DNA of 64,000 bases, taken from positions 1,019,501-1,083,500 of the forward strand of contig NZ_CP087715.1 in the NCBI RefSeq assembly GCF_020991125.1, read 5' to 3'. This DNA is from Microbulbifer celer. Its GTDB lineage: Bacteria; Pseudomonadota; Gammaproteobacteria; Pseudomonadales; Cellvibrionaceae. Positions 1 through 15,200 of the stretch are shown one piece after another. Below the pieces are notes generated by a model. That model was given only the letters and a program-made list of their open reading frames with translations, ran no database searches and was not told the DNA's origin. Position 1 is the stretch's first letter, and every line of letters begins with the position of its first letter. The position numbers and the translations under genes are program-made.

Positions 1-1
1 G

Positions 2-175
2 ATCAGGGGTCACTACGCCTACTTTGGGATCAGAGGCAACAGCGAATCGCTGGGACGCTTCTTGTATCTGGTACGGCGGCTCTGGATAAAGTGGCTGCGG
101 CGACGATCACAGAGGTATCGGTTGAGTTGGGGGGCGCTGAAAGACTGTTACAGCGTTACCCACTTCTGGTGGTAA
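2..175 (+). CDS. Group II intron reverse transcriptase/maturase, C-terminal end (partial)
   Basis: The frame is open from the window edge to TAA at 173-175 and encodes the last 57 residues of a group II intron-encoded protein. It begins IRGHYAYFGI, followed by a Leu/Arg-rich stretch with RRLWIKWLRRRSQR and a final SWGALKDCYSVTHFWW. This is the typical end of the maturase (X) and DNA-binding region, where RGHY.YFG and W..WL.RRS are common. The reverse transcriptase core lies outside the window, so activity cannot be judged. Intron domain V follows about 40 bases after the stop, as expected when the maturase is encoded in domain IV. Confidence 0.85.
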   Translation: MRGHYAYFGIRGNSESLGRFLYLVRRLWIKWLRRRSQRYRLSWGALKDCYSVTHFWW

Positions 176-214
176 GACTATCAGTCGTGAGACCCGCGAA
201 GGTGATGAATTGAG

Positions 215-286
215 GAGCCGGATACGTTAATCACGCACGTCCGGATCTGTGGGGGGCGGTGATGATGACATCACCGTCTGCCTGAC
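215..286 (+). ncRNA. Group II intron 3' end (domain V and a domain VI-like hairpin)
   Basis: Bases 215-247 fold as a domain V hairpin: GAGCCGGA pairs with TCCGGATC, and the catalytic AGC triad is at 216-218. A second hairpin, 251-282, sits where domain VI belongs (CGGTGATG against CATCACCG around an ATGA loop). I do not see an obvious bulged branch-point adenosine in its 3' strand. The intron probably ends near 286, at a ..TGAC-like end; the exact junction is inferred. The structure class is not resolved from this fragment. Confidence 0.75.
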
Positions 287-366
287 CACCTTTTGTATTA
301 CTCGCTGCCGCTCAAACATTTACACAAAATGCGGTCCGCGCTGGCTGCGCCTTATGAGATGGATAC

Positions 367-978
367 ATGGATAATTATTTAATATATGTCGGCGTAGCAA
401 TAGCTACTATTCTATTGCCTGGGCCCGCAGTTATGTTGACTATTAATAATTCTATTCAGAGAGGATTATTTAAATCAATTTCTGGGATACTTGGTATAGC
501 ATTAGCAATATTGCTTGTGGCGGTTATTTCTGCTACAAGTTTAGGCATTATTTTGGCAAGTTCTGTAATGGCTTTCACCATTGTGAAAATAATGGGTGCT
601 GTATATTTAATATACCTGGGCATAAAAACGTGGTGTGCAAAAGAGACAAGCGGAGCATGCTCTAGTTTTCAGGAGATCTCATTTTTAAGATGCTTTGTTG
701 AAGGTTTTCTAGTTTCCATTCTAAATCCAAAAGCTGCTGTTTTCTTTATGTCTATATTTCCCCAATTTATTGACCTGTCTCAAGAGTATAGGCCACAGTT
801 TGTTTTATTGGCGATGACTTTTAGCGCGCTAGTAATAGTTGTTCACACAACCTACGCAATTTTTTCCTCTTTTGCTAAATCTAAGATTTCGTCATCAAAA
901 GTTAGTGTCTTTTTAAATAAAGTTAGTGCGGGAGTTTTCGTTGGTTCTGGTATTGGTTTAGCCGCTTCAAGTAAGTAA
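367..978 (+). CDS. LysE/RhtB family amino-acid exporter
   Basis: This 203-residue inner-membrane protein has about six hydrophobic segments. It carries the LysE-family signature near the N-terminus (LPGPAVMLTINNSIQRG) and the later LNPKAAVFFMS motif, both typical of RhtB-type translocators that export amino acids or homoserine lactone-like compounds by proton exchange. Length matches the family (about 205). The substrate cannot be told from sequence. The gene is clearly A+T-rich compared with the genes beyond 2.4 kb and follows the group II intron directly, so it is probably acquired. It lies in the same direction as the next two genes, but the gaps of about 60-110 bases do not prove an operon. 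Confidence 0.85.
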   Translation: MDNYLIYVGVAIATILLPGPAVMLTINNSIQRGLFKSISGILGIALAILLVAVISATSLGIILASSVMAFTIVKIMGAVYLIYLGIKTWCAKETSGACSSFQEISFLRCFVEGFLVSILNPKAAVFFMSIFPQFIDLSQEYRPQFVLLAMTFSALVIVVHTTYAIFSSFAKSKISSSKVSVFLNKVSAGVFVGSGIGLAASSK

Positions 979-1087
979 GCTATTCATGAAAAGGCCAAGT
1001 GCAGCGACAACTTTTCCGTTACCGCTTCACCTTTCATTACTAAGCTGCGTATTTCGGCAGCGTTAGTTGCAACCAGGAATCTAGAGT

Positions 1088-1456
1088 GTGATTGAAATTA
1101 TACGGAGTAAAGATTGCGGAAATTCTCCCAAAAATCAGTTTGTAGAGAAGGTGGTCGTTGCTTTAGAATCTGGTGATTTTGAGTTTCTTGATGGAGTTCT
1201 ATCTGAAGGGGCTGTCTGGGAACTCGCGAATAGTAGTGTAACGGAAGGAGATGGTCTCCGAGCTCATATTCAAAGTTGTGGAGAGGGCGTTGCTCTAGTA
1301 AAAGTTGACCATGTAATTTCACATGGAAAATCAGGTTCAGCAAATGGTTATATCCAAGATAGGAAAGGTAAGGTGCTTCACTTTTGCCACTTCATAGAAT
1401 TTACAAGTGCAAAATGTGTGAAAATCAATAGGGTTTGTAGCTACGGAAAGTGCTAG
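1088..1456 (+). CDS. SnoaL/NTF2-like small protein
   Basis: The gene encodes a 122-residue protein starting at GTG (1088). The pattern FVEKVVVALESGDFEFLDGVLSEGAVWEL, followed by strands ending in HFCHFIEF, resembles NTF2-like (SnoaL/DUF4440) cone folds, in which one helix pair and a curved sheet form a small ligand pocket. No catalytic residue can be assigned. It is A+T-rich like its neighbours and lies between the LysE-like exporter and the S51 peptidase-like gene. The call is by fold pattern only; it could also be left as hypothetical. Confidence 0.55.
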   Translation: MIEIIRSKDCGNSPKNQFVEKVVVALESGDFEFLDGVLSEGAVWELANSSVTEGDGLRAHIQSCGEGVALVKVDHVISHGKSGSANGYIQDRKGKVLHFCHFIEFTSAKCVKINRVCSYGKC

Positions 1457-1517
1457 GCTACGAAGCACTTGGTATCAAGTTTGAAATGCGACGCCATTAG
1501 AGTAGCAGGAGAATCTG

Positions 1518-2141
1518 ATGAGAGAAATATTTCTATCTTCATCTTTCGCTGATGTAACAGATCTGTTTGTAAAATTCAGTGGAGGAAATCATGACGGTCA
1601 AAGAGTTACATTTATCCCAACAGCAAGCCTCACAGAAGAGGTAACGTTTTACGTGAGGGCAGGAAGGGAAGCCCTGGAAAAACTAGGTTTAATAGTTGAT
1701 GAACTAGAAATTTCAACGGCAACTAGTGAAGAAATAGAAAGCAGACTCGAAAATAATGACTACATCTACATTACCGGCGGAAATACATTCTTTTTACTTC
1801 AAGAGCTTAAGAGGACAGGTTCAGATAAGCTTATAACTGATCATATAAAATCTGGGAAGAAGTATATCGGGGAATCTGCCGGTTCTATTATCCTTTCACG
1901 GAATATAGAGTATGTGAAAGGCATGGACGATTTCTCAGCCGCGCCGAAGATTGGTTCTTTTTCTTCATTAGGTCTGGTTGAATTTTACCCAGTTCCTCAT
2001 TATACAAACTTCCCATTTAAAGAGTCAGTTGAGCGTATAATATCCAGTTATGAAGACGAGTTAGATCTTCTCCCTATTAGTAATACGCAAGCAATTATCG
2101 TGAATGATAATGAGTATGAAGTGTGGACCAGAGAAAATTAA
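1518..2141 (+). CDS. Peptidase S51 (peptidase E-like) / class I glutamine amidotransferase-like protein
   Basis: This 207-residue protein has the S51 layout: an N-terminal strand MREIFLSSSF, the ITGGNTFFLLQELK segment typical of peptidase E and cyanophycinase relatives, and the nucleophile-elbow region IGESAGSIILS (G-x-S-A-G), where the Ser would be catalytic. A late HYTNFPF stretch lies where a His is expected. Relatives cleave Asp-X dipeptides. AGGAG lies just before the ATG. The gene is A+T-rich and appears to belong to the same acquired block as the two upstream genes. Exact substrate unknown. Confidence 0.8.
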   Translation: MREIFLSSSFADVTDLFVKFSGGNHDGQRVTFIPTASLTEEVTFYVRAGREALEKLGLIVDELEISTATSEEIESRLENNDYIYITGGNTFFLLQELKRTGSDKLITDHIKSGKKYIGESAGSIILSRNIEYVKGMDDFSAAPKIGSFSSLGLVEFYPVPHYTNFPFKESVERIISSYEDELDLLPISNTQAIIVNDNEYEVWTREN

Positions 2142-2432
2142 AAATTGTAGTCTGTCGCATAAATTACTCGCTGCGCTCACAATTCTCCACAGCCACAAAC
2201 GTTAAGAGTCAAGATGAATCATTCTGAGTATTGAGACTGTCGTTAAAGAGGTGATGACTTAAATGCGATAACCACGTTGACAGATACCGCGGAATCGTGA
2301 CTGTGATTTCAGCAGGTTGCCGTATGCTGACACATATGGCTGCGCTCGTTTGAGGTGTCGCTGCACTCCATTATCTCGCATAAGCGCACCGTAAATACTT
2401 GGTGCGCTAAAGCATTAGTCAATCTGGTGGCT
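2142..2432. other. A+T-rich gap with short hairpins between accessory block and carnitine genes
   Basis: No gene is supported here. The short palindrome CTCGCTGCGCTC near 2168 resembles a stretch at 301-313 (CTCGCTGCCGCTC) just after the intron. An 8-bp hairpin, AGCGCACC at 2383-2390 with GGTGCGCT at 2401-2408, lies 25 bases beyond the carnitine dehydrogenase stop. It lacks a T run on either strand, so terminator function is uncertain. Confidence 0.4.
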
Positions 2433-3404
2433 TTATGTAATTCCGTGGCGCTCGCGGTGCTCTGAGAGCACTTTACCGGCACCCATTTCAAACTCGCTCA
2501 ATGCTTCCATAATGCGCACCAGACAGTTATCCCGCAAGGCTTCCAGTTCACGGATAGACTTGTCACCCGCTTGCTCTTGTGTGCCTTCTACCATGCGATC
2601 GATCAGCTGATCGTTAAGTTCCGGCGCTTCCAGTTTGGTCCATGGGAGCTTCAGGGCCGGGCCGAACTGTTCCAGCATGTGGCGCATGCCGGTTTCGCCG
2701 CCTGCCAGGTGATAGGTGAGGTTGGTGCCAATAAAGGCCCAGCGAAGGCCGGGGCCGTAAGTGATGGCCTGGTCGAGTTCACCGGTGGTGGCCACACCGT
2801 CGTTGACCAGGTGCAGGATTTCTCGCCAGATGGCTTCCAGCAGACGGTCGGACAGGTGGCCGTCAATCTCATTACGTACATGCAGTGGGTGCATGCCAAT
2901 GGCCTTGAAGAATTCCTGTGCGTGTTCGATGGTTTCCGCTGATGTTTTTTCACCGCCGACGACTTCTACCAACGGCAGCAGGTACACGGGGTTGAACGGG
3001 TGGCTTACCACGAAACGTTCCGGTGCGACCATTTTCTGCTGCAGCACGGAAGGCTTGAAGCCGGAAGTGGAAGAGCCGATCAATGCATCTTCGGGGGCCG
3101 CCTGGCTGATCTCTGCCAGCAGATCGATCTTCATTTCTTCGCGTTCGGGCGCATTCTCCTGAATGAAGTAGGCACCTCCACAGGCTTCTGCCAGTGTTGT
3201 TGCAAAACACAGGCGCTCTTTGCTGGCGCCTTTTACCAGGCCGATTTTCTCCAGCGCAGGCCAAGCGGTGTCGACACTCTCACGGAGTTTACGTTCGGCT
3301 TCTGTACCGGGATCCCAGGCGACGACGTCGTGGCCCTGAGCCAGCAGGCGGGAGACCCACCCGGCACCGATGACGCCGGTGCCGATTACTGTTGCGTGTG
3401 ACAT
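2433..3404 (-). CDS. lcdH: L-carnitine 3-dehydrogenase
   Basis: The 323-residue protein belongs to the 3-hydroxyacyl-CoA dehydrogenase superfamily in the form used for carnitine oxidation. It would convert L-carnitine to 3-dehydrocarnitine with NAD+ in the cytoplasm. The Rossmann motif GTGVIGAGW is at residues 8-16, with D31 of AWDPG positioned for the NAD ribose. SHPFNPVYLLPLVEVV and the NEIDGHLSDRLLEAIWREILHLV segment match the family's catalytic and helical region. A strong TAAGGAG precedes the ATG. It follows the BKACE gene by 9 bases, so the two form an operon. The specific carnitine assignment rests on this pairing, the downstream-type thioesterase and the CdhR-like regulator. cdhA is the equivalent name in Pseudomonas. 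Confidence 0.88.
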   Translation of the reverse strand: MSHATVIGTGVIGAGWVSRLLAQGHDVVAWDPGTEAERKLRESVDTAWPALEKIGLVKGASKERLCFATTLAEACGGAYFIQENAPEREEMKIDLLAEISQAAPEDALIGSSTSGFKPSVLQQKMVAPERFVVSHPFNPVYLLPLVEVVGGEKTSAETIEHAQEFFKAIGMHPLHVRNEIDGHLSDRLLEAIWREILHLVNDGVATTGELDQAITYGPGLRWAFIGTNLTYHLAGGETGMRHMLEQFGPALKLPWTKLEAPELNDQLIDRMVEGTQEQAGDKSIRELEALRDNCLVRIMEALSEFEMGAGKVLSEHRERHGIT

Positions 3405-3413
3405 GTAGTCTCC

Positions 3414-4310
3414 TTAGCCCTGTACTTTCAGGTTCAAACGCTCGCGGGTTTCAGCGGGGGTGGCTACGGTGCCGCCCAGCAGTTCTACGATATTGCGGGC
3501 TTTCTCCACCAGCTGTGCGTTGGTAGCCAGTTCGCCGCGCTTGAGATACAGGTTGTCTTCCAGGCCGACACGCATGTTGCCGCCGAGCAGCATGACCTGG
3601 GTTGCCATTGGAAACTGGTGACGGCCGATGCCGAATCCCGCCCACTGGGCGCCTTCTGGCAGGTTGTCCACCATGGATTTCAGGGTGCCGATTTCCGGCG
3701 GCGCGCCCCAAGGGATGCCCATACACAGTTGGAACAGCGGCGGTTCGTCCAGCAGGCCCTCTGCCATCATCTGGTTGGCAAACCACAGGTTGCCGGTGTC
3801 GAAGATTTCCAGTTCCGGTTTTACGCCCAGTTCCTGTACGCGCTTGGCGCCAAGGCGCAGCATCTCCGGGGAGGAGATGTACACCAGGTTGTTATCGCCG
3901 AAGTTGAGGGAGCCACAGTCCAGGGTGCAGATTTCGGGACGCAGTTCTTCGATGTGTGCCAGTCGCTCCATACCGCCGACCACGTCGGTGCCATCTGCGA
4001 AATCCATCGGGTTTTCATCCGGGCCCAGCAGCAGGTCGCCGCCCATGCCGGCGGTGAGGTTGATCACCACATCGGTGTCCGCCTCGCGGATGCGCTCAAC
4101 GACTTCGCGATACAGCGCAACGGAGCGGCTCGGTGCGCCGGTTTCCAGATCGCGCACGTGGATGTGTGCGATGGCTGCACCGGCTTTGGCGGCGGCGATG
4201 GCGTCATCGGCAATCTGCTTCGGAGTTACGGGTACGTGGGGGCTTTTTTCAGTAGTGGCCCCGGCGCCGGTGAGGGCGCAGGTGATGATCACCTTATTGT
4301 TCATCTGCAT
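3414..4310 (-). CDS. Beta-keto acid cleavage enzyme (BKACE, DUF849), probably 3-dehydrocarnitine-cleaving
   Basis: The 298-residue BKACE enzyme condenses a beta-keto acid with acetyl-CoA to yield acetoacetate and a new CoA thioester. With 3-dehydrocarnitine the products are acetoacetate and betainyl-CoA. The zinc-binding AHIHVRD motif lies near residue 50, [11 protein letters not shown] in the C-terminal half, and [13 protein letters not shown] near the end, all hallmarks of the family. AGGAG stands nine bases before the ATG at 4310. Overlap in function with lcdH, 9 bases downstream, supports the carnitine substrate. BKACE members accept many substrates, so activity is inferred from context. 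Confidence 0.87.
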
Positions 4311-4544
4311 TCGTGTTTGCTCCTGATAGGAAGAGGGGAGACTTCAGCGGTTATGCTAGTGATTGAACAAGAATTGGCTCGTACAAATCCGCTGGTTACT
4401 TTTGAAAAACCGACAGGCGGGGGAAAAAGTTGATAGACGCAGCGGTCAATGATGGAGTGGGGAAGAGACATGCAAGTTTGGGGGGACGGCAGTTGTCAGG
4501 TAGGAGGAGCCGAGGAATCCGCACCAATCAGTAATGAAGAAGGA

Positions 4545-5561
4545 TTAGCCGGGAGAATAGCCGCGGTCTTTACTGGGGCTGACACCGAAGTCCTGACGAT
4601 AAGCGGAGCTGAAATAGGCCGCGGATTGAAAACCGCAGGAGATGGCAATATCCAGTACCGTCATTTCGGTCTGTCGGAGAAGCTGACGCGCCTTATCGAG
4701 ACGCAATCGCCTGTAATAGCGTTTGGGCGGAGTGCCAACTTCGTTTTTGAACAGCCGCTCCAGCTCGCGTACAGAAGTCTCGCACTGGCTTGCGATCTGT
4801 TTAATGGACAGCGGCGTGGCCAGGTTTTGTTCCATTATCTGCACGGCCTGAATCAGGCGTCGGTTGGTGGTGGAGAGCCGGCCGCGCAGGCTCATGCGCT
4901 GCGCATCATCCGCACTCTGCACATGGGTATAGGTAAATTGCTCGGCCACAGCGGTTGCCAGTTTGCTCCCGTGGGCGGCGCGAATGATGTTCAGCATCAT
5001 ATCGAGACTGCTTAATCCGCCTGCCGCCGATACCTGGTTTTCTTCAATCAGGAACCTTTCTGGTACTACTTGAACAGATGGGTAACTTTCCTGAAACCCG
5101 CTACTGGCCTCCCAGTGCACGATTGCCTTTTGCCCTTGGAGCAGCCCCGCCTTGGCGAGAATATGGGCTCCGGTGTCGACACAGCCGAGGCTTACACCAT
5201 TGGCGGAAAGGCGCCTCAGCTCGGAGTACAGGGTATCGCTACAGCCTTGCAGCGGATTGAAACCGGATACCACAACGACCGTCTGGTATTCGCTGGGACA
5301 CTCCGCCATCGGGTATTGCACCTCGAAGGGGATGCCATTGGACGCTTCTACCGGTGCGCCGTCTTCAGACATAAAGGTGAACTGGAACAGCTTCCGGTCC
5401 GCCAGCCGATTGGCAACACGCAGGGGCTCCGAGCAACAGGCGAGGGCAAAGAAAGAAAACTGCGGGATCAGTACAAAGCCGATATGGACCACATCGCTCG
5501 GGCCGAATTTGGGAGGCTGAAAAGTATCCAGGCTGTCGAAAGTGGGTGAATCAGTGGTCAT
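4545..5561 (-). CDS. GATase1/AraC-type transcriptional activator, CdhR-like
   Basis: The protein has 338 residues. Residues about 25-195 form a DJ-1/PfpI (GATase1-like) ligand-binding domain (HIGFVLIPQFSFFALACCSEPLRVANRL, then SLGCVDTGAHILAKAGLL). Residues about 230-330 are an AraC HTH pair (ASQCETSVRELERLFKNEVG and DIAISCGFQSAAYFSSAYRQDFG). This architecture is shared with GbdR and CdhR, which activate glycine betaine and carnitine genes in Pseudomonas. It sits between the BKACE-lcdH operon, in the same direction, and the divergent receptor gene, so it probably controls both promoters. Ligand (carnitine or betaine) is inferred. Confidence 0.88.
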   Translation of the reverse strand: MTTDSPTFDSLDTFQPPKFGPSDVVHIGFVLIPQFSFFALACCSEPLRVANRLADRKLFQFTFMSEDGAPVEASNGIPFEVQYPMAECPSEYQTVVVVSGFNPLQGCSDTLYSELRRLSANGVSLGCVDTGAHILAKAGLLQGQKAIVHWEASSGFQESYPSVQVVPERFLIEENQVSAAGGLSSLDMMLNIIRAAHGSKLATAVAEQFTYTHVQSADDAQRMSLRGRLSTTNRRLIQAVQIMEQNLATPLSIKQIASQCETSVRELERLFKNEVGTPPKRYYRRLRLDKARQLLRQTEMTVLDIAISCGFQSAAYFSSAYRQDFGVSPSKDRGYSPG

Positions 5562-5690
5562 GTCGCAATTGTTTAAGAAGTAGTCGCATTTTAAAAAGTA
5601 TATGTCAGGTTAGACAGTAGGATAAGCCCCACTCAACACGCAGGCGGATATTTTTGAAGCCTTTTTAATCAATAACTAATTGGAAGTTGA

Positions 5691-7904
5691 ATGGAACCCG
5701 ATAGTCATACTGTTAATTCTCCACTGAACCTGAACCCGCTGGCCAAATTCATTTCCGCATCTCTTGCGGTGGTCATTGGTCAAACCGCTGTCGCTCAAGA
5801 AGCTGATCCTGAGCAGGCTACCAGCGCTGGCAACCTGAGTCTGGAAGAGGTGACTGTCACCGCCCAGAGAAAATCCCAGAACCTGCAGAGCGTTCCCATC
5901 GCCGTTTCTGCCTTCGGTGAAGAGGCCATGGAACGGGGCAATATGCTCGACGTAGAAGATGTCTCCGCAATGACTCCGGGATTTTCTTTGTCTTCCTACA
6001 ACCCGGTTACGCCGCAGCCGTACATTCGCGGTGTGGGCACCAACTCCAGTTCCGTGGGTGATGATGCATCTGTCGGTGTCTTCATTGATGAAGTCTACGC
6101 TGGCCGCGCCGGTGGCTATCGAGCAGATATGTTCGATGTGCAACGGGTAGAAGTACTGCGTGGCCCGCAGGGCTCCCTGTACGGCCGTAACGTTGCCGGT
6201 GGTGCAATCAACGTGATTACCAACAACCCCACCGACACCTTTGAAGCGAAGGCGAAGGTTACCGGAGGTAATTACAACCTGAAAGAGTTCCGCGGCATGC
6301 TGAGCGGGCCGATTGCGGACAGCGTCAATGGCCGTGTTGCTGTTTCCCGTCGTACCCGGGACGGCTGGATTGAGAACGTGAATACCGGCAACGACGATCT
6401 GGGCAATCAGGACAACCTGTCCGTGCGTGGCAAGCTCGCGGTGGTACTCGGTGACCGCACTGATCTGATGCTGAGTGCGGATTACGCCACCGACGATCTG
6501 ATCGGTTCCGGTGCGCGCAGTATCGTCGGCTACGAAGACGTCTTCGGCACCGCACATCCCACAGAGAATGATGCGGATAAAGTCGACAGCTTTGTCGACG
6601 GTTATGCCGAGCGCGACATGTACGGTGTTTCCGCCAAGTTGACCCACTCGCTGGATACCGTAGATCTGGTGTCCATTACCGCTTACCGTACCCAGGACTA
6701 CGCATTCAACGACGACATGATGGGCCGTTACCTGGCCGCGGCCGGTGCGGCGATGACCAACGATGCAGCGGAAGAGTCCAGCCAGTTCAGCCAGGAGCTG
6801 CGCGTCCAGTCTACCGGTACCGAGGCACTGGAGTGGACCGCTGGTCTGTATCTGTTCCAGGAAGACGTAGACCGTGTAGAGAGCTTTGACTCTTCCCGTG
6901 TCTATGACCTGGCCGGTTTCCCGGGGCTGATGTCTCGCCCGGTGTGGGATGCGAGCAACGAAACCACCAGCTATGCGGTATTCGGTGAAGCGACTTATCA
7001 TTTCTCACCAGCGTGGAGCGCGAGCTTTGGTGGCCGTTACACCTACGACCAGAAAGACTTCACCAGTGTTGCTAGCGGTGCGCCGGATGAGTTTGGTTTC
7101 CTCGCAGAAGACTACTCTGTAACCGCAGACAAGAATTGGAAGAAGTTCACCCCGAAAGCCACGCTGACTTATACCACTGAGAATGCGGATATCGTTTACG
7201 CGACCATCTCTGAAGGTTACAAGGCCGGTGGCTTCAACGGTATTGCCGCGACCGAGCAGGGTGCGACTGTTGCCTTTGATCCGGAAAATGCCACCAACTA
7301 CGAGATAGGTTTTAAAACCAGTATGCTCGGTCAGCGCGTACGTTTGAACGGCGCTGTGTTCTATCTCGACTACACCGATCTGCAAAGTTTTACCGTGGAC
7401 CTGGAAACCGGTCAGGTTGAGACCGCAACAGGTGATGCCGAAATCAAGGGTGTAGAGCTGGAAGCGTCAGCACTAGTGACCGACGCCCTGATGTTGGCCG
7501 TGAACTACGGCTACACCGATTCCGAATACGTGAGCTTTGAATCGGACCCAACTATTGTGGGCAATAACCTGGCGCGCACACCAGAGCACTCCGCTTCTGC
7601 CAGCATCAACTACGAGTGGATGCTGGGCAATGGTTCTGCCATCAACTTCAATACCAATGCCATGTATCAGGGCGAGGTGTTTTACAGTGTGGGTAATACC
7701 GAGGCCGCATCCGACGACGCACGCACGCTGGTCAATGCCAATGCGACCTGGGACAACTTCGACGGTCTGAAGGTGTCCCTGTGGGGGAAAAACCTGACCG
7801 ACGAAGCATACGTTGTACACGCCTTTGAACAGACGGGTATGGGCTTCGCCATTATGGGTGAACCTACTACCTGGGGTATCAGCGTAACCAAAGATTTCTT
7901 CTGA
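5691..7904 (+). CDS. TonB-dependent outer-membrane receptor
   Basis: The 737-residue receptor has an N-terminal signal peptide ending near AVAQEA, a TonB-box-like LEEVTVTAQ around residue 51, and a plug domain (SVPIAVSAFGEEAME, then YIRGVGTNSSSVGDDASVGVF, RVEVLRGPQGSLYGRN). A long beta-barrel follows, with FTPKATLTYTTENADIVYATISEGYKAGGFNG and a terminal aromatic KDFF. The style matches the receptors of Sphingomonas and marine Gammaproteobacteria for larger organic molecules rather than siderophores. It is divergent from the CdhR-like regulator and 98 bases ahead of a BCCT carrier gene. By context it may bring carnitine or long-chain acylcarnitine across the outer membrane; this substrate is an inference. 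Confidence 0.92.
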   Translation: MEPDSHTVNSPLNLNPLAKFISASLAVVIGQTAVAQEADPEQATSAGNLSLEEVTVTAQRKSQNLQSVPIAVSAFGEEAMERGNMLDVEDVSAMTPGFSLSSYNPVTPQPYIRGVGTNSSSVGDDASVGVFIDEVYAGRAGGYRADMFDVQRVEVLRGPQGSLYGRNVAGGAINVITNNPTDTFEAKAKVTGGNYNLKEFRGMLSGPIADSVNGRVAVSRRTRDGWIENVNTGNDDLGNQDNLSVRGKLAVVLGDRTDLMLSADYATDDLIGSGARSIVGYEDVFGTAHPTENDADKVDSFVDGYAERDMYGVSAKLTHSLDTVDLVSITAYRTQDYAFNDDMMGRYLAAAGAAMTNDAAEESSQFSQELRVQSTGTEALEWTAGLYLFQEDVDRVESFDSSRVYDLAGFPGLMSRPVWDASNETTSYAVFGEATYHFSPAWSASFGGRYTYDQKDFTSVASGAPDEFGFLAEDYSVTADKNWKKFTPKATLTYTTENADIVYATISEGYKAGGFNGIAATEQGATVAFDPENATNYEIGFKTSMLGQRVRLNGAVFYLDYTDLQSFTVDLETGQVETATGDAEIKGVELEASALVTDALMLAVNYGYTDSEYVSFESDPTIVGNNLARTPEHSASASINYEWMLGNGSAINFNTNAMYQGEVFYSVGNTEAASDDARTLVNANATWDNFDGLKVSLWGKNLTDEAYVVHAFEQTGMGFAIMGEPTTWGISVTKDFF

Positions 7905-8002
7905 TCTCTGACGTTATGTAACGCCACTCGGAGGCGCCGGAGCTCGATTACGCAACCTGGATCCGGCACCTCTGTTTTTTGTCCTGAACAGGAAAAATAC
8001 GA

Positions 8003-9595
8003 GTGAAAGTATCCCAATTACAGGGGCAGCCCAGGCTGGACCTGCCTGTCTTTATTCCCGCCTTCGGCATTGCCATCATGGCCGCCTGTCTCCTGGTATT
8101 TAAACCGGATCAAGCTCAGACCTGGGCTGCTCATATGATGTCGCAGGTGACCAGCCAATTTGGTTGGCTGTTTGTATGCTTTGGTTTCGGCACGTTTGTT
8201 TTTGCACTGTGGCTGGCCTTCGGTCGCTTTGGCCAGGTGAAGATGGCACGCACCGATGAGCCACCGGAGTACTCCGAACTCAGCTGGGCGGCCATGATGT
8301 TTTCCGCCGGTATCGGTATCGGCCTGGTGAGCTGGTCTTTTGTCGAGCCAATTTATTACCTGTCGACACCGCCGCTGCATATTGATCCGCACTCGCCACA
8401 GGCTGCCGAGTGGGGCCATATGTACACGCTGTTCCACTGGAGCTTTGTGCCCTGGGCATTGTACGCGGTACCGTCCGTTGCCGTGGCGTATATGCTGCAT
8501 GTGCGCCGTCGTCCGTACCTGCGGATTTCAGAGGTCTGCCGCCCGCTGTTGGGGAATCGTGTAGATGGCTGGATCGGCAAGTTGATCGATACCCTGATTA
8601 TTCTCGGTTTGGTCGGGGGCGCGGGTACCTCATTGGGCCTGGGTGTACCGCTGGTTTCCGGACTGACTACCTCGCTGTTGGGTATCGAGAAAAACCTTTA
8701 TACCGAGCTGGGTGTGATTGCATTCTGGACCCTGATCTTTGGTGCCAGTGCCTATAAAGGTCTCAAGGCCGGTATCCGCATCCTCAGTGATATCAATATT
8801 TTTCTCGCTATTGCACTGGTACTCCTGGTGCTGTTTGTGGGCCCGACGGTATTTATCCTCTCCATGTCTGCCAACAGTATCGGTTTGATGCTGGACAGCT
8901 TCCCGCGTATCAGCTTCTGGCTGGACCCGATTGAGCGCGGTGGCTTTCCCGACGCCTGGACCCTGTTCTACTGGGCCTGGTGGATTGCCTACGCGCCGCT
9001 GATGGGGTTGTTTTTCGGGCGTATTTCCCGCGGGCGCACCATTCGCCAGATGGTACTGGGCATTCTGACGTGGGGTAGCCTCGGTTGTATTTCCTTCCTC
9101 AGTGTCTGTGGTTCTTATGCTTTGCACCTGGAGCTCTCCGGTGCATTGGAGGTAACCCAGCTGCTGAACGAGCAAGGTATTCCGGCCACTGTGGTGGCGA
9201 TCGTCAAAACTCTGCCATTCAGTAAAGTAGTGCTCGCCGCCTTCACTCTGCTCAGTTTTGTGTTTCTGGCAACTACGCTGGACTCTTCCGCCTATGTTCT
9301 GGCGAGTATCAGCACTAAAAATCTGTACGGAGAGCAGGAGCCGGGCAAACGCAATCGATTGGCCTGGGCGTTTGCGCTGGCACTGATCGCGGTGGGGCTG
9401 TTGTTCGCCAGTGGTCTGGATACGGTCAAGTCTCTGACCATTATCCTCGCACTCCCACTTACGATTGTGCTGTTCGTTATCTTCCGGGCGTTGACGCGGG
9501 TATTGAACGAAGACTTTGGCAAAGAAGTGCAGAAGGATGCCCTGATCGTGGCGTCGGCAAAGATTGATGCGAATAATTCAGATAAGGAAAACTAA
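8003..9595 (+). CDS. BCCT family transporter (betaine/carnitine/choline type)
   Basis: This 530-residue, 12-TM secondary transporter carries the BCCT signature region DAWTLFYWAWWIAYAPLMGLFFGRISRGRTIRQ, where aromatic residues cage a trimethylammonium group. The FSAGIGIGLVSWSFVEPIYY segment carries the glycine-rich unwound helix. The start is GTG at 8003 with AGGAAA upstream. It lies between the receptor and the periplasmic esterase genes in what looks like one transcript. Given the neighbours, carnitine is the likely substrate, taken up across the inner membrane; glycine betaine or choline are alternatives. Na+ or H+ coupling is not resolved. Confidence 0.93.
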   Translation: MKVSQLQGQPRLDLPVFIPAFGIAIMAACLLVFKPDQAQTWAAHMMSQVTSQFGWLFVCFGFGTFVFALWLAFGRFGQVKMARTDEPPEYSELSWAAMMFSAGIGIGLVSWSFVEPIYYLSTPPLHIDPHSPQAAEWGHMYTLFHWSFVPWALYAVPSVAVAYMLHVRRRPYLRISEVCRPLLGNRVDGWIGKLIDTLIILGLVGGAGTSLGLGVPLVSGLTTSLLGIEKNLYTELGVIAFWTLIFGASAYKGLKAGIRILSDINIFLAIALVLLVLFVGPTVFILSMSANSIGLMLDSFPRISFWLDPIERGGFPDAWTLFYWAWWIAYAPLMGLFFGRISRGRTIRQMVLGILTWGSLGCISFLSVCGSYALHLELSGALEVTQLLNEQGIPATVVAIVKTLPFSKVVLAAFTLLSFVFLATTLDSSAYVLASISTKNLYGEQEPGKRNRLAWAFALALIAVGLLFASGLDTVKSLTIILALPLTIVLFVIFRALTRVLNEDFGKEVQKDALIVASAKIDANNSDKEN

Positions 9596-9596
9596 G

Positions 9597-10511
9597 ATGT
9601 ATAAACCCAAGTTCATTTTGAGTGCTTTGGTGTCGGTATCGTTTTCGGCATTGTTGATGACCCCGCTCGCACAGGCGAACGATGAGAGCCGGCAGGAGCT
9701 CGAGGACGTGGTGGAAGAGGGGGGCATGGAGTCCTTTGTGGCTAACGCCATCGCCCACGCCAAAGCGACGGTGAAAGAAACCACATTGGATGTCATAAGC
9801 GAAGATCTGCGCCCATACGATCAGCGCTTTTTCCCTAAAGGTGGGGGCAAGGTGCCGACGGTGCTGTTCTTCCATGGTTGTAGCGGCCCAACTGAAAGCC
9901 ACGAGAAAGACTGGGCGAAGAAATTCAATGACGCCGGCATCGGTATGATCGCGGTCGACAGTTACGAGGGCCGTGGTATCGAATGGGAGCAGGCGTGTAA
10001 CTTCCAGGCGATGACACCCTGGCAGCGCTCCGCGGATATTCTGGCCACCATCGAAGACGTTGAGAATGACCCGCGTGTGGACGCAGACCAGCTGTACCTG
10101 GCCGGCTTCTCTCACGGTGCAGTGACCATCTGGGCGGCATTGGCTCAGGCTTCTGCCAAGAGCGCACCTTTTAGCCTTGTCGAATGGCCACAGGTTGACT
10201 TTGAGCAGCGTGTACAGGGTGCCTTCATGTTCTATGGCACCTGCATGCAGCCGTGGACGGTCGATGTAGACAGCGTCATGTTCCTCGGCACCGAAGACCG
10301 CTACATCGAAGAAGAAGTCTGTCAGGCATATGCGCCCAAGCATCCAGAGAATGCCGGCGAGCTGACTTTGAAGATCTATCCGGGGGCCACCCACACTTTC
10401 GACCACGCCAACCCGAATCAGGCAAATATTGAAGCGGGCTCGGTGTTTGATGCCGAGGCCACAGAAGACGCCTGGCAGACCATGCTGAAAATGATCAAGG
10501 GCAATCAGTAA
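9597..10511 (+). CDS. Periplasmic dienelactone-hydrolase-family esterase
   Basis: This 304-residue protein starts at 9597, where AAGGAAAACTAAG precedes the ATG; an upstream in-frame ATG at 9564 lacks this site. A signal peptide ends near LAQA. The fold is DLH-like alpha/beta hydrolase: VLFFHGCSGPTESH, nucleophile elbow AGFSHGAVTIW (Ser rather than the Cys of true dienelactone hydrolases), FLGTEDRYIEEEV with the acid, and ATHTFDHANP with the catalytic His. It starts one base after the BCCT stop and its stop overlaps the thioesterase start (TAATG). Inferred role: hydrolysing acylcarnitine to carnitine in the periplasm, as HocS does in Pseudomonas carnitine operons, though not by the same family. 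Confidence 0.8.
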   Translation: MYKPKFILSALVSVSFSALLMTPLAQANDESRQELEDVVEEGGMESFVANAIAHAKATVKETTLDVISEDLRPYDQRFFPKGGGKVPTVLFFHGCSGPTESHEKDWAKKFNDAGIGMIAVDSYEGRGIEWEQACNFQAMTPWQRSADILATIEDVENDPRVDADQLYLAGFSHGAVTIWAALAQASAKSAPFSLVEWPQVDFEQRVQGAFMFYGTCMQPWTVDVDSVMFLGTEDRYIEEEVCQAYAPKHPENAGELTLKIYPGATHTFDHANPNQANIEAGSVFDAEATEDAWQTMLKMIKGNQ

Positions 10512-10933
10512 TGGCGGGCGTACGTACTTTTTCCGGTGTGGCGCACACCTGGCTATGCGATGAAATGGGGCACATGAATACCCGCAACTATGTGGGGATG
10601 TTTGACGATGCCATGCAGCACTTTATGTTGACCCTTGGCCACCAGGCGATGGTGGATGGGGAGCGTTGCCTGGGTTGGGCGGATGTCCGCCACGAGATCG
10701 ACTACAAGGCAGAGGTGCCGGAAGGTGCGCTAGTGCATGTGGAGTGCGAAGCGTTGCGCGTGGGGAACAGCTCCATCACATACCGCCAGATACTGGTGCT
10801 GACCGAGACTGGTGAAGTGGCAGCGGTCAACAAGGCGACTTCAGTGCTGTTCGACCTCAAGCGGCGCGGTACTGCGTTCATTCCCGATGTGATGCGAGAG
10901 AAGGTGAAGCCGTATATGGCTGAAGATGTCTGA
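10511..10933 (+). CDS. 4-hydroxybenzoyl-CoA-type thioesterase, probably betainyl-CoA thioesterase
   Basis: A 140-residue hotdog-fold thioesterase. The catalytic region WLCDEMGHMNTRNYVGMFDDA matches the D-x-x-G-H-x-N pattern of 4HBT enzymes. In carnitine degradation the BKACE product betainyl-CoA is hydrolysed by such a thioesterase (CdhB in Pseudomonas) to glycine betaine. In some bacteria it is fused to carnitine dehydrogenase; here it is separate and ends the rightward transporter operon. The start codon overlaps the esterase stop, so translation is coupled. A strong terminator follows at 10957. Function is inferred from family and context. Confidence 0.82.
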   Translation: MAGVRTFSGVAHTWLCDEMGHMNTRNYVGMFDDAMQHFMLTLGHQAMVDGERCLGWADVRHEIDYKAEVPEGALVHVECEALRVGNSSITYRQILVLTETGEVAAVNKATSVLFDLKRRGTAFIPDVMREKVKPYMAEDV

Positions 10934-10983: not shown

Positions 10984-11226
10984 TGGGGCAGTCGGTCGTT
11001 TGCGGGCGGGTAGGGCTGTGCAGCAGGCCGCCGTCGAGTGGCAGGAAAAGTGCATGTCTTACCAGTCTCGGTGGTGATGGCCGAAGTTGAAATGCTATTG
11101 CATGGATTGGCCATACCAATAATGGAATTTGTGGAAAGTAATCTGTACTCTCTGTGCCACGTATCAGTATGTGACGCCGTCGAATATTGCGGTTTAGTGG
11201 TTGGTAGAGTCAATTTGAGAGCAGAT

Positions 11227-12288
11227 ATGGCAGGACGTAACAGCGGTTTGCGGGGGGCGAGTATTGCCGCCGTGATACTGAGTATGGGGTTTCTTTCCGC
11301 ATGTCAGCAGGAGCCCGGGGCGGGTTCCCGCGAGCGGGAAACCCCAGCGCAGCCCGTGGTCACGGAAGCAGTGGCCTGGCAGCCGCGACAGGTCAAGGTA
11401 GAGGCGGTGGGAACATCCCGTGCATACAAGAGCGTTACCCTGTATCCGGAAGTGCGTGGCGAAGTCGTTGAAGTCTCGCTAAAAGCCGGCGACCGCGTTA
11501 AAGCGGGACAGGCGATCGTTAAACTCGATGACCGCGATCAGAAACTGGCAGTAGAGCTGGCCCAGGTCAACCTGGAGGATGCCAAACGACTCTTCAGCCG
11601 CTACAAACGAACGCGCAGCTCGGGCTCGGTCACCGAGAGCGCGTTGGACGATGCGCGCAGTGCGGTAGAGCGCGCTCGCCTCAGCCTGGCACGGGCGCAG
11701 GTGGCGCTGGATTACCGCCGTGTCAAAGCCCCGTTTGATGGACACATCGGGATCACCAATATCGATCCCGGTGCCCGTATCGATCCCTCCACCGCCATCA
11801 CCACCATTGACGATCGCAGTACGCTGCTGGTGACCTTTCAGGTGCCGGAGTTGTTTCTGGGCCAGATCAAAGAGGGGCAGTCGATTTCGGTGGCCACCTG
11901 GGCCAATGGCAACCCGGACCATCAGGGGCAAGTGATCGATATCGATAGCCGCGTCAGCCCCGACACCCGAACCTTTGCGGTGCGCGCACAGGTAGACAAC
12001 AGCGCTGATCTGCTGCGGCCCGGTATGAGTTTCCGGGTGACGCTCAGTATGGAAGCGGGCCGATACCCGGTGATACCGGAAGTGGCCTTGCAGTGGGGGA
12101 ATGACGGCGCGTTTGTATGGGCGGTGCAGGAAAATGGAACCGTCAGCCGGGTACCGGCCACCGTGGTGCAGCGACTGCAGGGTGCGATTCTGGTGGAGTC
12201 GGACCTGCCGGAAGGTCAATCCGTGGTTACAGAGGGTACCCAGCGAATGCGCGAGGGATTGCCAGTGACCAATCTGGCGGGGCTGTAA
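11227..12288 (+). CDS. RND efflux periplasmic adaptor lipoprotein (membrane fusion protein)
   Basis: The chosen ATG at 11227 gives a 353-residue protein with a lipoprotein signal, lipobox LSAC with Cys26; a longer frame from 11038 would bury it. After the anchor come the HlyD/AcrA layers: a beta-barrel/lipoyl half (VSLKAGDRVKAGQAIVKLDDRDQKL), a short alpha-hairpin (about residues 110-150), the second lipoyl half VKAPFDGHIGITNIDPGARI, and the beta-barrel VPELFLGQIKEGQSI. It would link the RND pump to an outer-membrane channel not encoded here. It stops 3 bases before the pump gene. Confidence 0.93.
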   Translation: MAGRNSGLRGASIAAVILSMGFLSACQQEPGAGSRERETPAQPVVTEAVAWQPRQVKVEAVGTSRAYKSVTLYPEVRGEVVEVSLKAGDRVKAGQAIVKLDDRDQKLAVELAQVNLEDAKRLFSRYKRTRSSGSVTESALDDARSAVERARLSLARAQVALDYRRVKAPFDGHIGITNIDPGARIDPSTAITTIDDRSTLLVTFQVPELFLGQIKEGQSISVATWANGNPDHQGQVIDIDSRVSPDTRTFAVRAQVDNSADLLRPGMSFRVTLSMEAGRYPVIPEVALQWGNDGAFVWAVQENGTVSRVPATVVQRLQGAILVESDLPEGQSVVTEGTQRMREGLPVTNLAGL

Positions 12289-12291
12289 GTC

Positions 12292-15200
12292 ATGACGGAT
12301 CACACCAAGGACGCAGCCCCGGCTGACTTTAATCGCGATGATCTCGCCTCGCTGGCGATCCGGCGTCCGGTGTTGGTGCTGGTACTCAACCTGTTGATCG
12401 CTATTGCCGGCATCGCCGCATTCAGCGCGGTGGAAGTGCGGGAACTGCCTGATGTGGACGTACCCATTGTTTCCGTTCGCGGCGAAATGCCCGGGGCCTC
12501 ACCGGAAACCATGGACTCGGAAGTGACCAGTATCGTGGAGGGCGCCGTGGCCCGGGTTTCCGGCGTCAAGCACATCGAGTCGTCCAGTGAAGAAAACAAC
12601 TTCCGTATCCATATTGAATTCAATTCCAATATCGATCTGGATACTGCAGCGGCGGACGTGCGCGAGGCAGTGAGCCAGGCGGAGCGGGAATTGCCGGACG
12701 ACGGCGAGCAATTGACCGTGGTGAAAGCCGCGGATCAACCTGAGCCGGTGATGCATCTGGCGGTGACCAGCGACCGCCTGCGTGATGAAGCGCTCACCTA
12801 CATTATTGAAAAAGACATTATTCCCGAGTTGATCTCAATTCCCGGTGTGGCCGATGTGCCGATCAACGGCCAGCGCCAGCGCGTTTTGCGGGTTGTGCTG
12901 GATCCACTGCGCCTGACCAGTTTCGGTCTGTCTGTCAGTGATGTGGCGGGTGTACTGGAGCAGGCACCGCTGGATGTGCCTTCCGGCAGCTTCACATCAG
13001 AAGATCAACAACTGCTGGTGCGTACGGATGCCTCCACCGTTACCGAAGCGCAGATTCGGGACATCATTGTGGACGGTGAGGTGCGCATTGGCGACGTCGC
13101 GCATGTGTCGTTCGGGCCGGAAGATGTCCAGTCTCTGGTATATCTCAATGATCGCCCGGTCATTGGTCTCGGCGTGGTGCGTCAGGCCCAGAGTAACACC
13201 ATCGAGATCAGTGAGGGCGTGCGCCGGGCTGTGGACTCGCTGAATGAGCGCTTTGATAATCTTTCGATCACTGTTACCGAAGACCGCGCGGTGTTCATTA
13301 AAGGTTCGGTGAAGGAAGTGGTTACCAGCCTGATGTATACCGTGCTGATTGTGATCGCAGCGATCTGGCTGTTCTTCGGCAATCTGCGCACCACCCTGGT
13401 TCCCAGTACCGCGATTCCCATCGCACTGGTCGGCACGCTCGCGGGCATCTGGCTGATGGGGTTCTCCATCAATATTCTGACGCTGTTGGCCATTGTGCTC
13501 GCCACCGGTCTGGTAGTGGATGATGCGATTGTGGTACTGGAGAATATCCAGCGCCTGCGCAGCCAGGGTATGGGCGCCCGCGCGGCCGCAGTGCTGGGGA
13601 CACGACAGGTGGTCTTTGCGGTTCTCGCCACCACCGCGGTATTGATCAGTGTGTTTATTCCCATCGCGCTGTTACCGAGTACCGCGGGGCGTATGTTCCG
13701 CGAGTTTGGCCTGGTGCTGGCGACGGCGGTGGCACTGTCTTCTGTGGTGGCTCTGACCCTGGTGCCGATGCTGACTGCGCGGGTGTCTCGGAATGACTTC
13801 CAGAGTGAGTCGAATGCCGAACCCCATCCGTTTTACGTGCGCCTGGTTCGTATCGGAGAAAAGATTGCCAGCGGCTATTACCGTAGCCTCGCGGCGTGTC
13901 TGCGTCACGGCTGGTTGAGCTTTGCAGTGGCCATGATGCTTGCGGTGGGCGCTGGTGGTCTTTATCTCTCCCTGGGCAAGGAATTGTTGCCCTCGGAAGA
14001 TCGCGGTGTGATTTACGTGTTCGCCACTGGCCCCGATGGGGTGGGGCAGAACTATATCGGGCGTCAGGCGGAGCATATCGAGGATGTGTTGCGGCCGCTG
14101 GTGGCGCGCGGCGATGCGACGGATATCATTTCCCAAGTAGGCCGCTACGATCCCAATCGGGCGCACTTTTCGTTGCCGCTGGCACCCTGGGAGCAGCGTA
14201 CTGTGTCTCAGCAATCCCTGATTGACGAAATCCTCGGCCCGCTGGAGCAGATTCCCGGCGCCCGCATTCGCGTCAGTAGCCCGAACAGTCTTTCCCTGCG
14301 TGGTGGCGGCGGTGGTATCGAGGTTGCTCTGGTGGGCAATGATTACCCGCATATTTACGATGCCGCGCGCAAAATGGCGCGCGCCATGGAGGATCGGCTG
14401 CCTCACCTTGGGCAGCCGGATATCAGCTATCGCCCCAGCCAGCCGCAGTTATCGATCGAGATCGATCGCCGCCGCGCCGCCGACCTCGGCGTGCCGCTGG
14501 ACAGTATCGCCACTACCTTGCGCACCGTTGTCGATGGCCTGGATGTGGTGGACCTGAACGTGGGGGATCAGGCGGTGCCGATCATGCTGGAAACTGCCAA
14601 TACCACGGTTTCCTCGCCGGAAGATCTGGTCAACCTGTATGTAAAAAGTGACAGCGGTGCGCTGTTACCGCTGTCGAGTATGGTCACCCTACGGGAAGAG
14701 AGCGTTGCCGCCGAACTCGACCGTCACGGGCAGCGCCGCGCGATTGAGATTGATGCGGGGCTGGAACCTGGTTATCCCTTGGCCAGTGCAGTCGAGGATA
14801 TCCGTCAGCTGGGCAAGGAAGTGCTGCCGGAAGATGTGGGGATCGTCTTTCTGGGCGAGGCGGATTCTCTGGAGGAAAGCTCGCGGGAAGTGGCCATGAC
14901 CTACGCCATCGCCGCATTGGTGGTTTTCCTTGTGCTGTGTGCGCAGTTCGAGGGCATCAGCAGCGCGGTGATCGTGATGACCACGGTGCCCTTTGGTCTG
15001 GCTGCGGCGGTTTACGCACTGTTTTTCACTGGCACTACGGTGAATATCTTTTCCCAGATCGGCCTGGTGATGCTGATCGGCCTGATGGCCAAGAACGGGA
15101 TCCTGCTGGTGGAGTTTGCGGACCAGTTGCGGGACCGTGGATACAGCGTATACGACGCTGTCACCGAAGCCGCACGGGTGCGTCTGCGTCCCATCGCCAT

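What the first reader, a model, noticed from the sequence alone, without database searches (positions are those of the whole stretch)
2433..10933. A carnitine-use locus that includes its own TonB receptor, BCCT carrier and periplasmic esterase
Carnitine dehydrogenase, BKACE, 4HBT thioesterase and a GATase1/AraC regulator are the known Pseudomonas cdh set (established knowledge). There the transport is by an ABC system. Here a TonB-dependent receptor, a BCCT carrier and an exported DLH-type esterase are built into two divergent operons around the regulator. This suggests active outer-membrane uptake of a bulky carnitine ester, which is inference. Receptors for carnitine derivatives are, to my knowledge, not described.
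Basis: partly seen in the sequence, partly recalled or inferred. Interest (0 to 1): 0.7.

Follow-up and report, generated by a model that had tools for sequence, protein, structure and literature searches.

The report
Carnitine-ester uptake and breakdown locus
A marine bacterium carries, next to its genes for breaking down carnitine, its own outer-membrane uptake receptor, an inner-membrane carrier and an exported ester-cutting enzyme, and this set recurs in relatives, which suggests that these bacteria actively collect carnitine esters.

Summary
In detail: carnitine dehydrogenase (CDH), BKACE, GATase1/AraC regulator, TonB receptor, BCCT carrier, exported DLH-type esterase and 4HBT thioesterase lie at 2433-10933 of a Microbulbifer chromosome. 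The order recurs in all 10 CDH-bearing genomes of the genus held, two Idiomarina and a Paraglaciecola. The receptor goes with carnitine: of the 80 best receptor relatives (a capped list), 13 are at least 39% identical; 12 of these share a contig with carnitine genes and the 13th has a 5-kb contig; of the other 67 none has CDH, BCCT or regulator on the held fragment. 19 carnitine-locus receptors form one clade. Each comes with an exported esterase: DLH type in 13, PAF-acetylhydrolase-type lipoprotein in 6; the tree implies an esterase swap under a retained receptor. Five hydrolases sampled from loci without the receptor are of a third family. Receptor and catabolic promoters share a CdhR-like element. 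None of three kinds of glycine-betaine demethylating enzyme was found in the genome, so glycine betaine may be the end product. Most likely: TonB-driven import of a carnitine ester, hydrolysis outside the inner membrane, BCCT import of carnitine. The ligand is untested. New variant of a known kind.

The parts
2433..3404 (-). L-carnitine 3-dehydrogenase (CdhA-like)
   Evidence: NF005471 454.4 bits over cut-off 414; Pfam 3HCDH_N and 3HCDH
3414..4310 (-). BKACE, dehydrocarnitine cleavage enzyme (CdhC-like)
   Evidence: PF05853 347.7 bits; beside CDH in 18 of the 19 receptor genomes, the 19th (L068) being a 5-kb contig
4353..4416 (-). promoter-like element of the catabolic operon: TGTCG half-site, second CG half-site 21 bp on, TAGCAT box 55 bases from the first
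   Evidence: 13 of 13 loci, same spacing; profile from the other 12 loci scores 22.9 bits here
4545..5561 (-). GATase1/AraC regulator, CdhR/GbdR-like
   Evidence: PF01965 and PF12833; best NCBIfam GbdR, 305 bits, below its cut-off
5562..5623 (+). promoter-like element of the receptor operon: GTCGC at 5562-5566 and 5583-5587, TAGGAT box at 5618-5623
   Evidence: TAG[GC]AT box 34 bases after the proximal half-site in 13 of 13 loci; distal half-site in 10 of 13; profile score 29.8 bits, best place outside the two elements 13.7
5691..7904 (+). TonB-dependent receptor of a carnitine-locus clade
   Evidence: PF07715 and PF00593; AF2 model pLDDT 83.7, TonB-receptor fold; clade SH-aLRT 98
8003..9595 (+). 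BCCT carrier, substrate-site aromatics as in CaiT but no Arg262 equivalent
   Evidence: PF02028 512 bits; nearest solved structure DddT; residue mapping
9597..10511 (+). exported DLH-type alpha/beta-hydrolase (esterase)
   Evidence: PF01738 59.8 bits; N-terminal signal peptide by eye; GFSHG nucleophile motif, D234 and H266/H270 invariant in 9 rows
10511..10933 (+). 4HBT thioesterase, probable betainyl-CoA thioesterase (CdhB-like)
   Evidence: PF13279 58.8 bits; weak match to the thioesterase half of NF005716

Best explanation
This is a self-contained locus for scavenging a carnitine ester. The receptor, energised by TonB, takes the ester (most likely an acylcarnitine) through the outer membrane; the exported DLH-type esterase cuts it outside the inner membrane; the BCCT carrier imports the freed L-carnitine; CDH oxidises it to 3-dehydrocarnitine, BKACE transfers the betaine unit to CoA with release of acetoacetate, and the 4HBT enzyme frees glycine betaine. 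The CdhR-like regulator switches on both divergent operons through the same two-half-site element. None of three kinds of glycine-betaine demethylating enzyme searched for was found in this genome, so glycine betaine is probably kept as an osmoprotectant while acetoacetate and the acyl part feed carbon metabolism. Shown by sequence comparison: the gene set, the conserved linkage of receptor with carnitine genes, the constant pairing of receptor with an exported esterase, the shared promoter element. Inferred: the ligand, the order of steps, induction by carnitine, the fate of glycine betaine.
For: Family models for every enzyme. Order conserved in 10 of 10 CDH-bearing genomes of the genus (window plus 9 loci) and in 3 loci of Idiomarina and Paraglaciecola. 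Family-wide, 12 of 143 genomes have a receptor match of 903 bits or more and all 12 carry CDH. 19 carnitine-locus receptors are one side of a branch, SH-aLRT 98, 0 of 500 label shuffles as clustered. Exported esterase in 19 of 19: DLH in 13, PAF-AH type in 6, signal peptide or lipobox seen by eye in all 19. 5 of 5 hydrolases that I picked (from 15 loci inspected) behind CDH in order-level loci without the receptor are PF07859 proteins, and the 4 whose start could be read show no signal peptide. Shared promoter element with the period of the footprinted P. aeruginosa CdhR site GGTCGC-N15-GGTCGC (PMC5806209, passages). No Rieske-type demethylase, stand-alone S-methyltransferase or MTTB enzyme found in the genome.
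Against: No binding, growth or expression data. L-carnitine and short acylcarnitines are small enough for porins (recalled), so a receptor is not strictly needed. BCCT is seen in 16 of 19 receptor loci; it is missing from the fragments of L029 (10.4 kb) and L071 (13.7 kb) and from the short L068. In Parahaliea (L067/L191) receptor plus BCCT and CDH plus esterase lie about 11 kb apart with a COX1-like and a VWA-domain gene between, and another TonB receptor lies near CDH. Three of the four CDH proteins tested from PAF-type loci (L066, L072, L191; the first two given shortened) score below NCBI's carnitine dehydrogenase cut-offs. One locus outside the clade (L158) has the PAF-type esterase, BCCT and CDH with only an unrelated TonB receptor about 9 kb away. 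The CDH-bearing genome G009 shows no receptor on its 7-kb contig (a 23-bit fragment at the end; genome 83% complete). Against a general osmolyte role: four other receptor genomes (Seongchinamella, Parahaliea, Paraglaciecola, Aestuariicella) do have Rieske-type matches. The DLH and PAF-type proteins have no close characterised relative that I found (the DLH was compared with solved structures; the PAF type only with Pfam), and the DLH model is modest (pLDDT 71.5). At least 20 genomes of the genus lack CDH, so the locus is accessory.
Confidence: 0.62

Rival explanations
1. The receptor imports free L-carnitine (or another small betaine) at scarce concentrations, and the esterase works on a separate source of carnitine esters.
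For: BCCT is present in 16 of 19 receptor loci; TonB receptors for a small non-metal ligand exist, e.g. PqqU with PQQ among the PDB matches. Clade-specific receptor residues include five Asp and four aromatics, which would suit a trimethylammonium group of either ligand.
Against: An exported esterase goes with the receptor in 19 of 19, and in two families, which free carnitine would not require.
Confidence: 0.2
2. The true substrate is another bulky trimethylammonium compound (for example a betaine lipid or choline ester) that yields carnitine or a related betaine after cleavage; the locus is not specific to acylcarnitine.
For: The type-2 esterases are nearest to the platelet-activating factor acetylhydrolase family (PF03403), whose known substrates are choline phospholipids (recalled); BCCT is nearest to a DMSP carrier (DddT, substrate recalled).
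Against: CDH and BKACE in 18 of 19 receptor genomes (the 19th a 5-kb contig) point to carnitine itself as the intracellular substrate.
Confidence: 0.13
3. The receptor is an ordinary siderophore receptor that happens to sit in the operon.
For: Best structural and sequence matches in the PDB are siderophore receptors, but these dominate the solved set.
Against: Linkage with carnitine genes confined to one clade and spanning Microbulbifer, Idiomarina, Paraglaciecola and Halieaceae; no iron gene among the seven; promoter element shared with the catabolic operon.
Confidence: 0.03

Closest known systems
caiX-cdhCAB-hocS operon with cdhR of Pseudomonas aeruginosa (PMC5806209, passages)
   Same: CDH, BKACE, thioesterase and a divergent GATase1/AraC regulator; an ester hydrolase is part of the set; GTCG half-sites with a 15-bp spacer.
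   Different: There a periplasmic binding protein and ABC carrier import the substrate and no TonB receptor is named in the operon; the hydrolases behind CDH in five order-level loci that I checked are Abhydrolase_3 proteins, not exported DLH or PAF-type enzymes. The HocS sequence itself was not at hand.
Acinetobacter carnitine cluster ESGCACB-0016 (PMC9162365, passages)
   Same: BCCT carnitine carrier plus a putative acylcarnitine hydrolase.
   Different: Carnitine monooxygenase CntAB route; LysR regulator; the word TonB does not occur in the paper.
SAR11 carnitine/choline island (PMC12421898, passages)
   Same: CDH and BKACE in a marine genomic island.
   Different: Glycine-betaine ABC carrier; the word TonB does not occur in the paper.
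CaiT, L-carnitine/gamma-butyrobetaine antiporter
   Same: BCCT family; aromatic substrate-site residues and Met331 conserved.
   Different: CaiT Arg262 is Asn265 here, and the nearest solved structure is DddT (456 vs 281 bits).

Membership tests
aerobic carnitine-to-glycine betaine pathway (cdh) | L-carnitine dehydrogenase | tested here: met
   NF005471 over cut-off
aerobic carnitine-to-glycine betaine pathway (cdh) | BKACE and thioesterase in the same locus | tested here: met
   PF05853, PF13279; substrate specificity not testable here
aerobic carnitine-to-glycine betaine pathway (cdh) | divergent GATase1/AraC regulator with GTCG half-sites 21 bp apart | tested here: met
   binding itself not testable. 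Distal half-site of the receptor promoter absent in 3 of 13 loci
P. aeruginosa-type cdh operon | caiX binding protein / ABC import in the operon | tested here: not met
   none among the 10 proteins scanned, the seven plus three neighbours
TonB-dependent receptors | plug and beta-barrel | tested here: met
   PF07715, PF00593 over cut-offs; model matches FyuA, PiuA, FhuA
TonB-dependent receptors | TonB box and TonB-driven transport | not testable with these tools
   EEVTVTA at 52-58 looks like a TonB box (recalled motif)
BCCT carriers | BCCT domain | tested here: met
   PF02028 and TIGR00842 over cut-off
CaiT-type Na-independent antiporter | Arg at position 262 (role recalled) | tested here: not met
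   Asn265 at that column in window and in 5 of 5 relatives aligned
HocS-type acylcarnitine hydrolase | same hydrolase family as the enzyme behind CDH in operons without the receptor | tested here: not met
   DLH (PF01738) here, Abhydrolase_3 (PF07859) in 5 of 5 tested; the HocS sequence itself was not at hand
acylcarnitine receptor (proposed) | binding of carnitine or its esters | not testable with these tools
   needs a binding assay

The most novel reading that the evidence does not exclude
A whole clade of TonB-dependent receptors is dedicated to carnitine esters and works as a unit with an esterase held outside the inner membrane (a lipoprotein by its lipobox in 9 of 19 loci, all six PAF-type and three DLH-type), so that marine bacteria turn acylcarnitines from algae or animals into the osmoprotectant glycine betaine plus carbon. 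The receptor was retained while the esterase and the dehydrogenase lineage were exchanged, which marks uptake as the constant core of the system.
Probability: 0.45. Interest if true: 0.75.

Novelty: new variant of a known kind. Interest (0 to 1): 0.62.

Why it matters
TonB receptors are numerous in marine bacteria and mostly without a known ligand (recalled). Here genomic context ties one clade to a defined small-molecule class, so a ligand can be tested directly. If true, it adds quaternary-amine esters to the list of TonB substrates, explains how carnitine esters may be used in the sea, and offers a salvage route to glycine betaine.

Tried and rejected
Chance neighbourhood of an iron receptor: rejected by the linkage confined to one clade. 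CaiT-like antiporter: the Arg262 equivalent is absent. Recent acquisition judged by composition: GC of the locus 0.561 against 0.566 for the window, no sign. PDB comparisons of the receptor and the DLH gave only general families. FAO_M (PF16350) search for dimethylglycine breakdown was uninformative: the two f20-family genomes with cdh loci, meant as positive controls, did not ring; of 12 genomes only Seongchinamella did. The PF00848 search did not ring in its E. coli control, so it was repeated with an E. coli YeaW query that gave 617 bits in a same-order genome, G261, and nothing in the window's genome. Receptor-like partial matches at the edges of L158, L168 and L171 were extended: other TonB receptors (best local identity 27-35% to the window's). 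L157 has a 33-bit receptor fragment 4 kb from CDH, not followed. L074, sister to the clade, was read for a clue to an ancestral substrate; nothing decisive. Literature searches for a carnitine or acylcarnitine TonB receptor listed no paper that, by title and start of abstract, describes one; the library is open-licence PMC only.

One search scored only the best 8 receptor candidates of each genome. Of the 39 order-level CDH fragments, 9 show no BKACE (L158, L170, L171, L173-L178), so some may not be carnitine loci, and several are short (L160 and L162 under 5 kb).
Full report
What is there. The window lies in a 4.35-Mb, one-contig genome. At 2433-10933 seven genes form two divergent groups around a regulator: CDH, BKACE and the regulator on the minus strand; receptor, BCCT carrier, DLH hydrolase and 4HBT thioesterase on the plus strand. 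CDH passes the curated cut-off for L-carnitine dehydrogenase. The 4HBT protein has one weak NCBIfam match, to the thioesterase half of the fused carnitine dehydrogenase model (26 bits). The DLH protein begins with a signal peptide as judged by eye and keeps a GFSHG nucleophile motif, Asp234 and His266/270 in 9 of 9 aligned rows.

Conservation. CDH is present in 14 of 144 genomes of the family, 10 of them in the window's genus; at least 20 listed genus members lack it. In all 9 other genus loci the seven genes have the same order and orientation. Of the window's own neighbours that I looked for, the RND pair adjoins the locus in only two of the nine and there at the other end, and the three left-hand genes were not found at these loci (one has a 31% LysE-like gene), so the seven genes behave as one accessory unit. 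Two Idiomarina genomes and Paraglaciecola arctica, of other families, have the same seven genes (CDH 70-72%, receptor 57% identical).

Is the receptor part of the carnitine system? 13 receptors are 39% or more identical to the window's; 11 have CDH on the fragment. For L067 CDH lies about 11 kb further along the same contig. L068 is a 5,166-base contig with the receptor and an esterase. Among the other 67 receptors (38% or less) none has CDH, BCCT, regulator, DLH or 4HBT on its fragment; one (L103) has a 33% BKACE. Some of these fragments are short. In the family-wide profile search 12 of 143 genomes score 903 bits or more, all 12 CDH-bearing; the next score, 834.6, is a second receptor of one of these, then 829.9 in a genome without CDH. 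A tree of 86 receptors puts the 19 distinct carnitine-locus receptors on one side of a branch with SH-aLRT 98; 0 of 500 label shuffles are as clustered (quick search, no bootstrap).

The esterase test. All six carry instead a roughly 500-residue hydrolase of the PAF-acetylhydrolase type (PF03403 over cut-off) with a lipobox by eye: next to the receptor in L029, L068, L071 and L072, behind CDH in L066 and L191. All 13 DLH proteins have an N-terminal signal by eye, three of them with a lipobox (both Idiomarina and Paraglaciecola). So 19 of 19 receptor loci have an exported esterase, 13 of one family and 6 of another. On the receptor tree the DLH loci are nested within the PAF-type loci, which reads as one exchange of the esterase while the receptor stayed. 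Among 39 order-level CDH fragments outside the genus, 30 with BKACE, only L172, the Seongchinamella locus again, has a full receptor near CDH, and the PAF-type esterase occurs in L172 and L158 only; L158 is the one case of that esterase without a receptor of this clade. In 5 loci without the receptor that I picked out of 15 inspected, the hydrolase behind CDH is an Abhydrolase_3 protein; in the 4 whose start could be read there is no signal peptide. Where the ester is cut thus appears to go with how it is taken up; I did not check these five for ABC carriers.

Carrier. The BCCT protein is nearest to DddT among solved structures (456 bits; CaiT 281, BetP 247). Aligned with E. coli CaiT it keeps Tyr114, Trp142, Trp147, Trp316, Trp323, Tyr327 and Met331, but Arg262 is Asn265 (residue roles recalled). 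This fits carnitine or betaine import but not a CaiT-type antiporter. A BCCT gene is seen in 16 of 19 receptor loci, not in L029, L071 and the short L068.

Receptor anatomy. 22 positions are conserved in at least 94% of the 19 carnitine receptors and in at most 25% of the 67 others: among them Asp124, 296, 341, 400 and 420, and Phe98, Tyr103, Phe339 and Phe567. By the strand order of the AF2 model, most of these barrel positions lie at strand ends next to the long, presumably outer, loops, and positions 98-140 lie in the plug. That would suit a cationic ligand; it is an inference without coordinates.

Control. In the 13 seven-gene loci both promoters hold half-sites 21 bases apart. The proximal CG is present in 26 of 26 sites and lies at a fixed 34 bases before a TAG[GC]AT box in 13 of 13 receptor promoters and, counted through the 21-base step, in 13 of 13 catabolic promoters; the distal GTCG is present in 10 of 13 and 13 of 13. 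A profile from the other 12 loci scores the two window sites 29.8 and 22.9 bits; the next best place in 64 kb scores 13.7. The footprinted CdhR site of P. aeruginosa is GGTCGC-N15-GGTCGC, the same period, and the CG is needed for binding of the related GbdR (PMC5806209, passages). Caveats: the sites were picked from alignments (the catabolic ones with a box allowed 45-65 bases away), the two Idiomarina are near-copies, and in Microbulbifer the distal half-site of the receptor promoter touches the regulator's start codon.

End product. The genome shows no Rieske-type demethylase with an E. coli YeaW query, while the same-order genome G261 gives 617 bits. It has a single S-methyltransferase domain, in a 1,244-residue frame as expected for MetH, and no MTTB protein. 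So none of three kinds of entry enzyme for glycine-betaine breakdown was found, and retention as osmolyte is the simplest reading for this genome. Others differ: of 9 Microbulbifer searched, including the window's genome, two (G099, G102) have matches, at 24-31% identity, which I did not identify; both Idiomarina have none; Seongchinamella, Parahaliea, Paraglaciecola and Aestuariicella have two or more each.

Verdict. What it is: a known catabolic pathway combined with a dedicated outer-membrane receptor, not described before as far as these searches show, and an exported esterase. Ligand and mechanism await the bench.

Noticed in passing
window 1-2432: The stretch left of the locus (a LysE-like exporter by eye, a SnoaL-like protein below cut-off, an S51 peptidase) has 41.7% GC against 56.6% for the window, possibly an acquired insert.
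   Followed up: no
window 11038-15441; L019, L021: An RND efflux pair (adaptor by Pfam, pump by eye) adjoins the carnitine locus here behind 4HBT, and in two other Microbulbifer genomes (G072, G102) it adjoins the other, CDH end.
   Followed up: partly
window 20858-22387 and 22417-24240: A second BCCT carrier followed by a gene that looks by eye like a cation/proton antiporter; the genome has five BCCT genes in all.
   Followed up: no
L071 7220-8425: A gamma-butyrobetaine-hydroxylase-like dioxygenase (GBBH N-domain plus TauD) lies between CDH and a regulator, so that locus may start from gamma-butyrobetaine.
   Followed up: partly
L158 (G375): PAF-type esterase, BCCT and a CDH-thioesterase fusion without a receptor of the clade; an unrelated TonB receptor lies about 9 kb away.
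   Followed up: partly
L066 18830-21157: A tannase-like DUF6351 protein beside the Seongchinamella carnitine locus.
   Followed up: no
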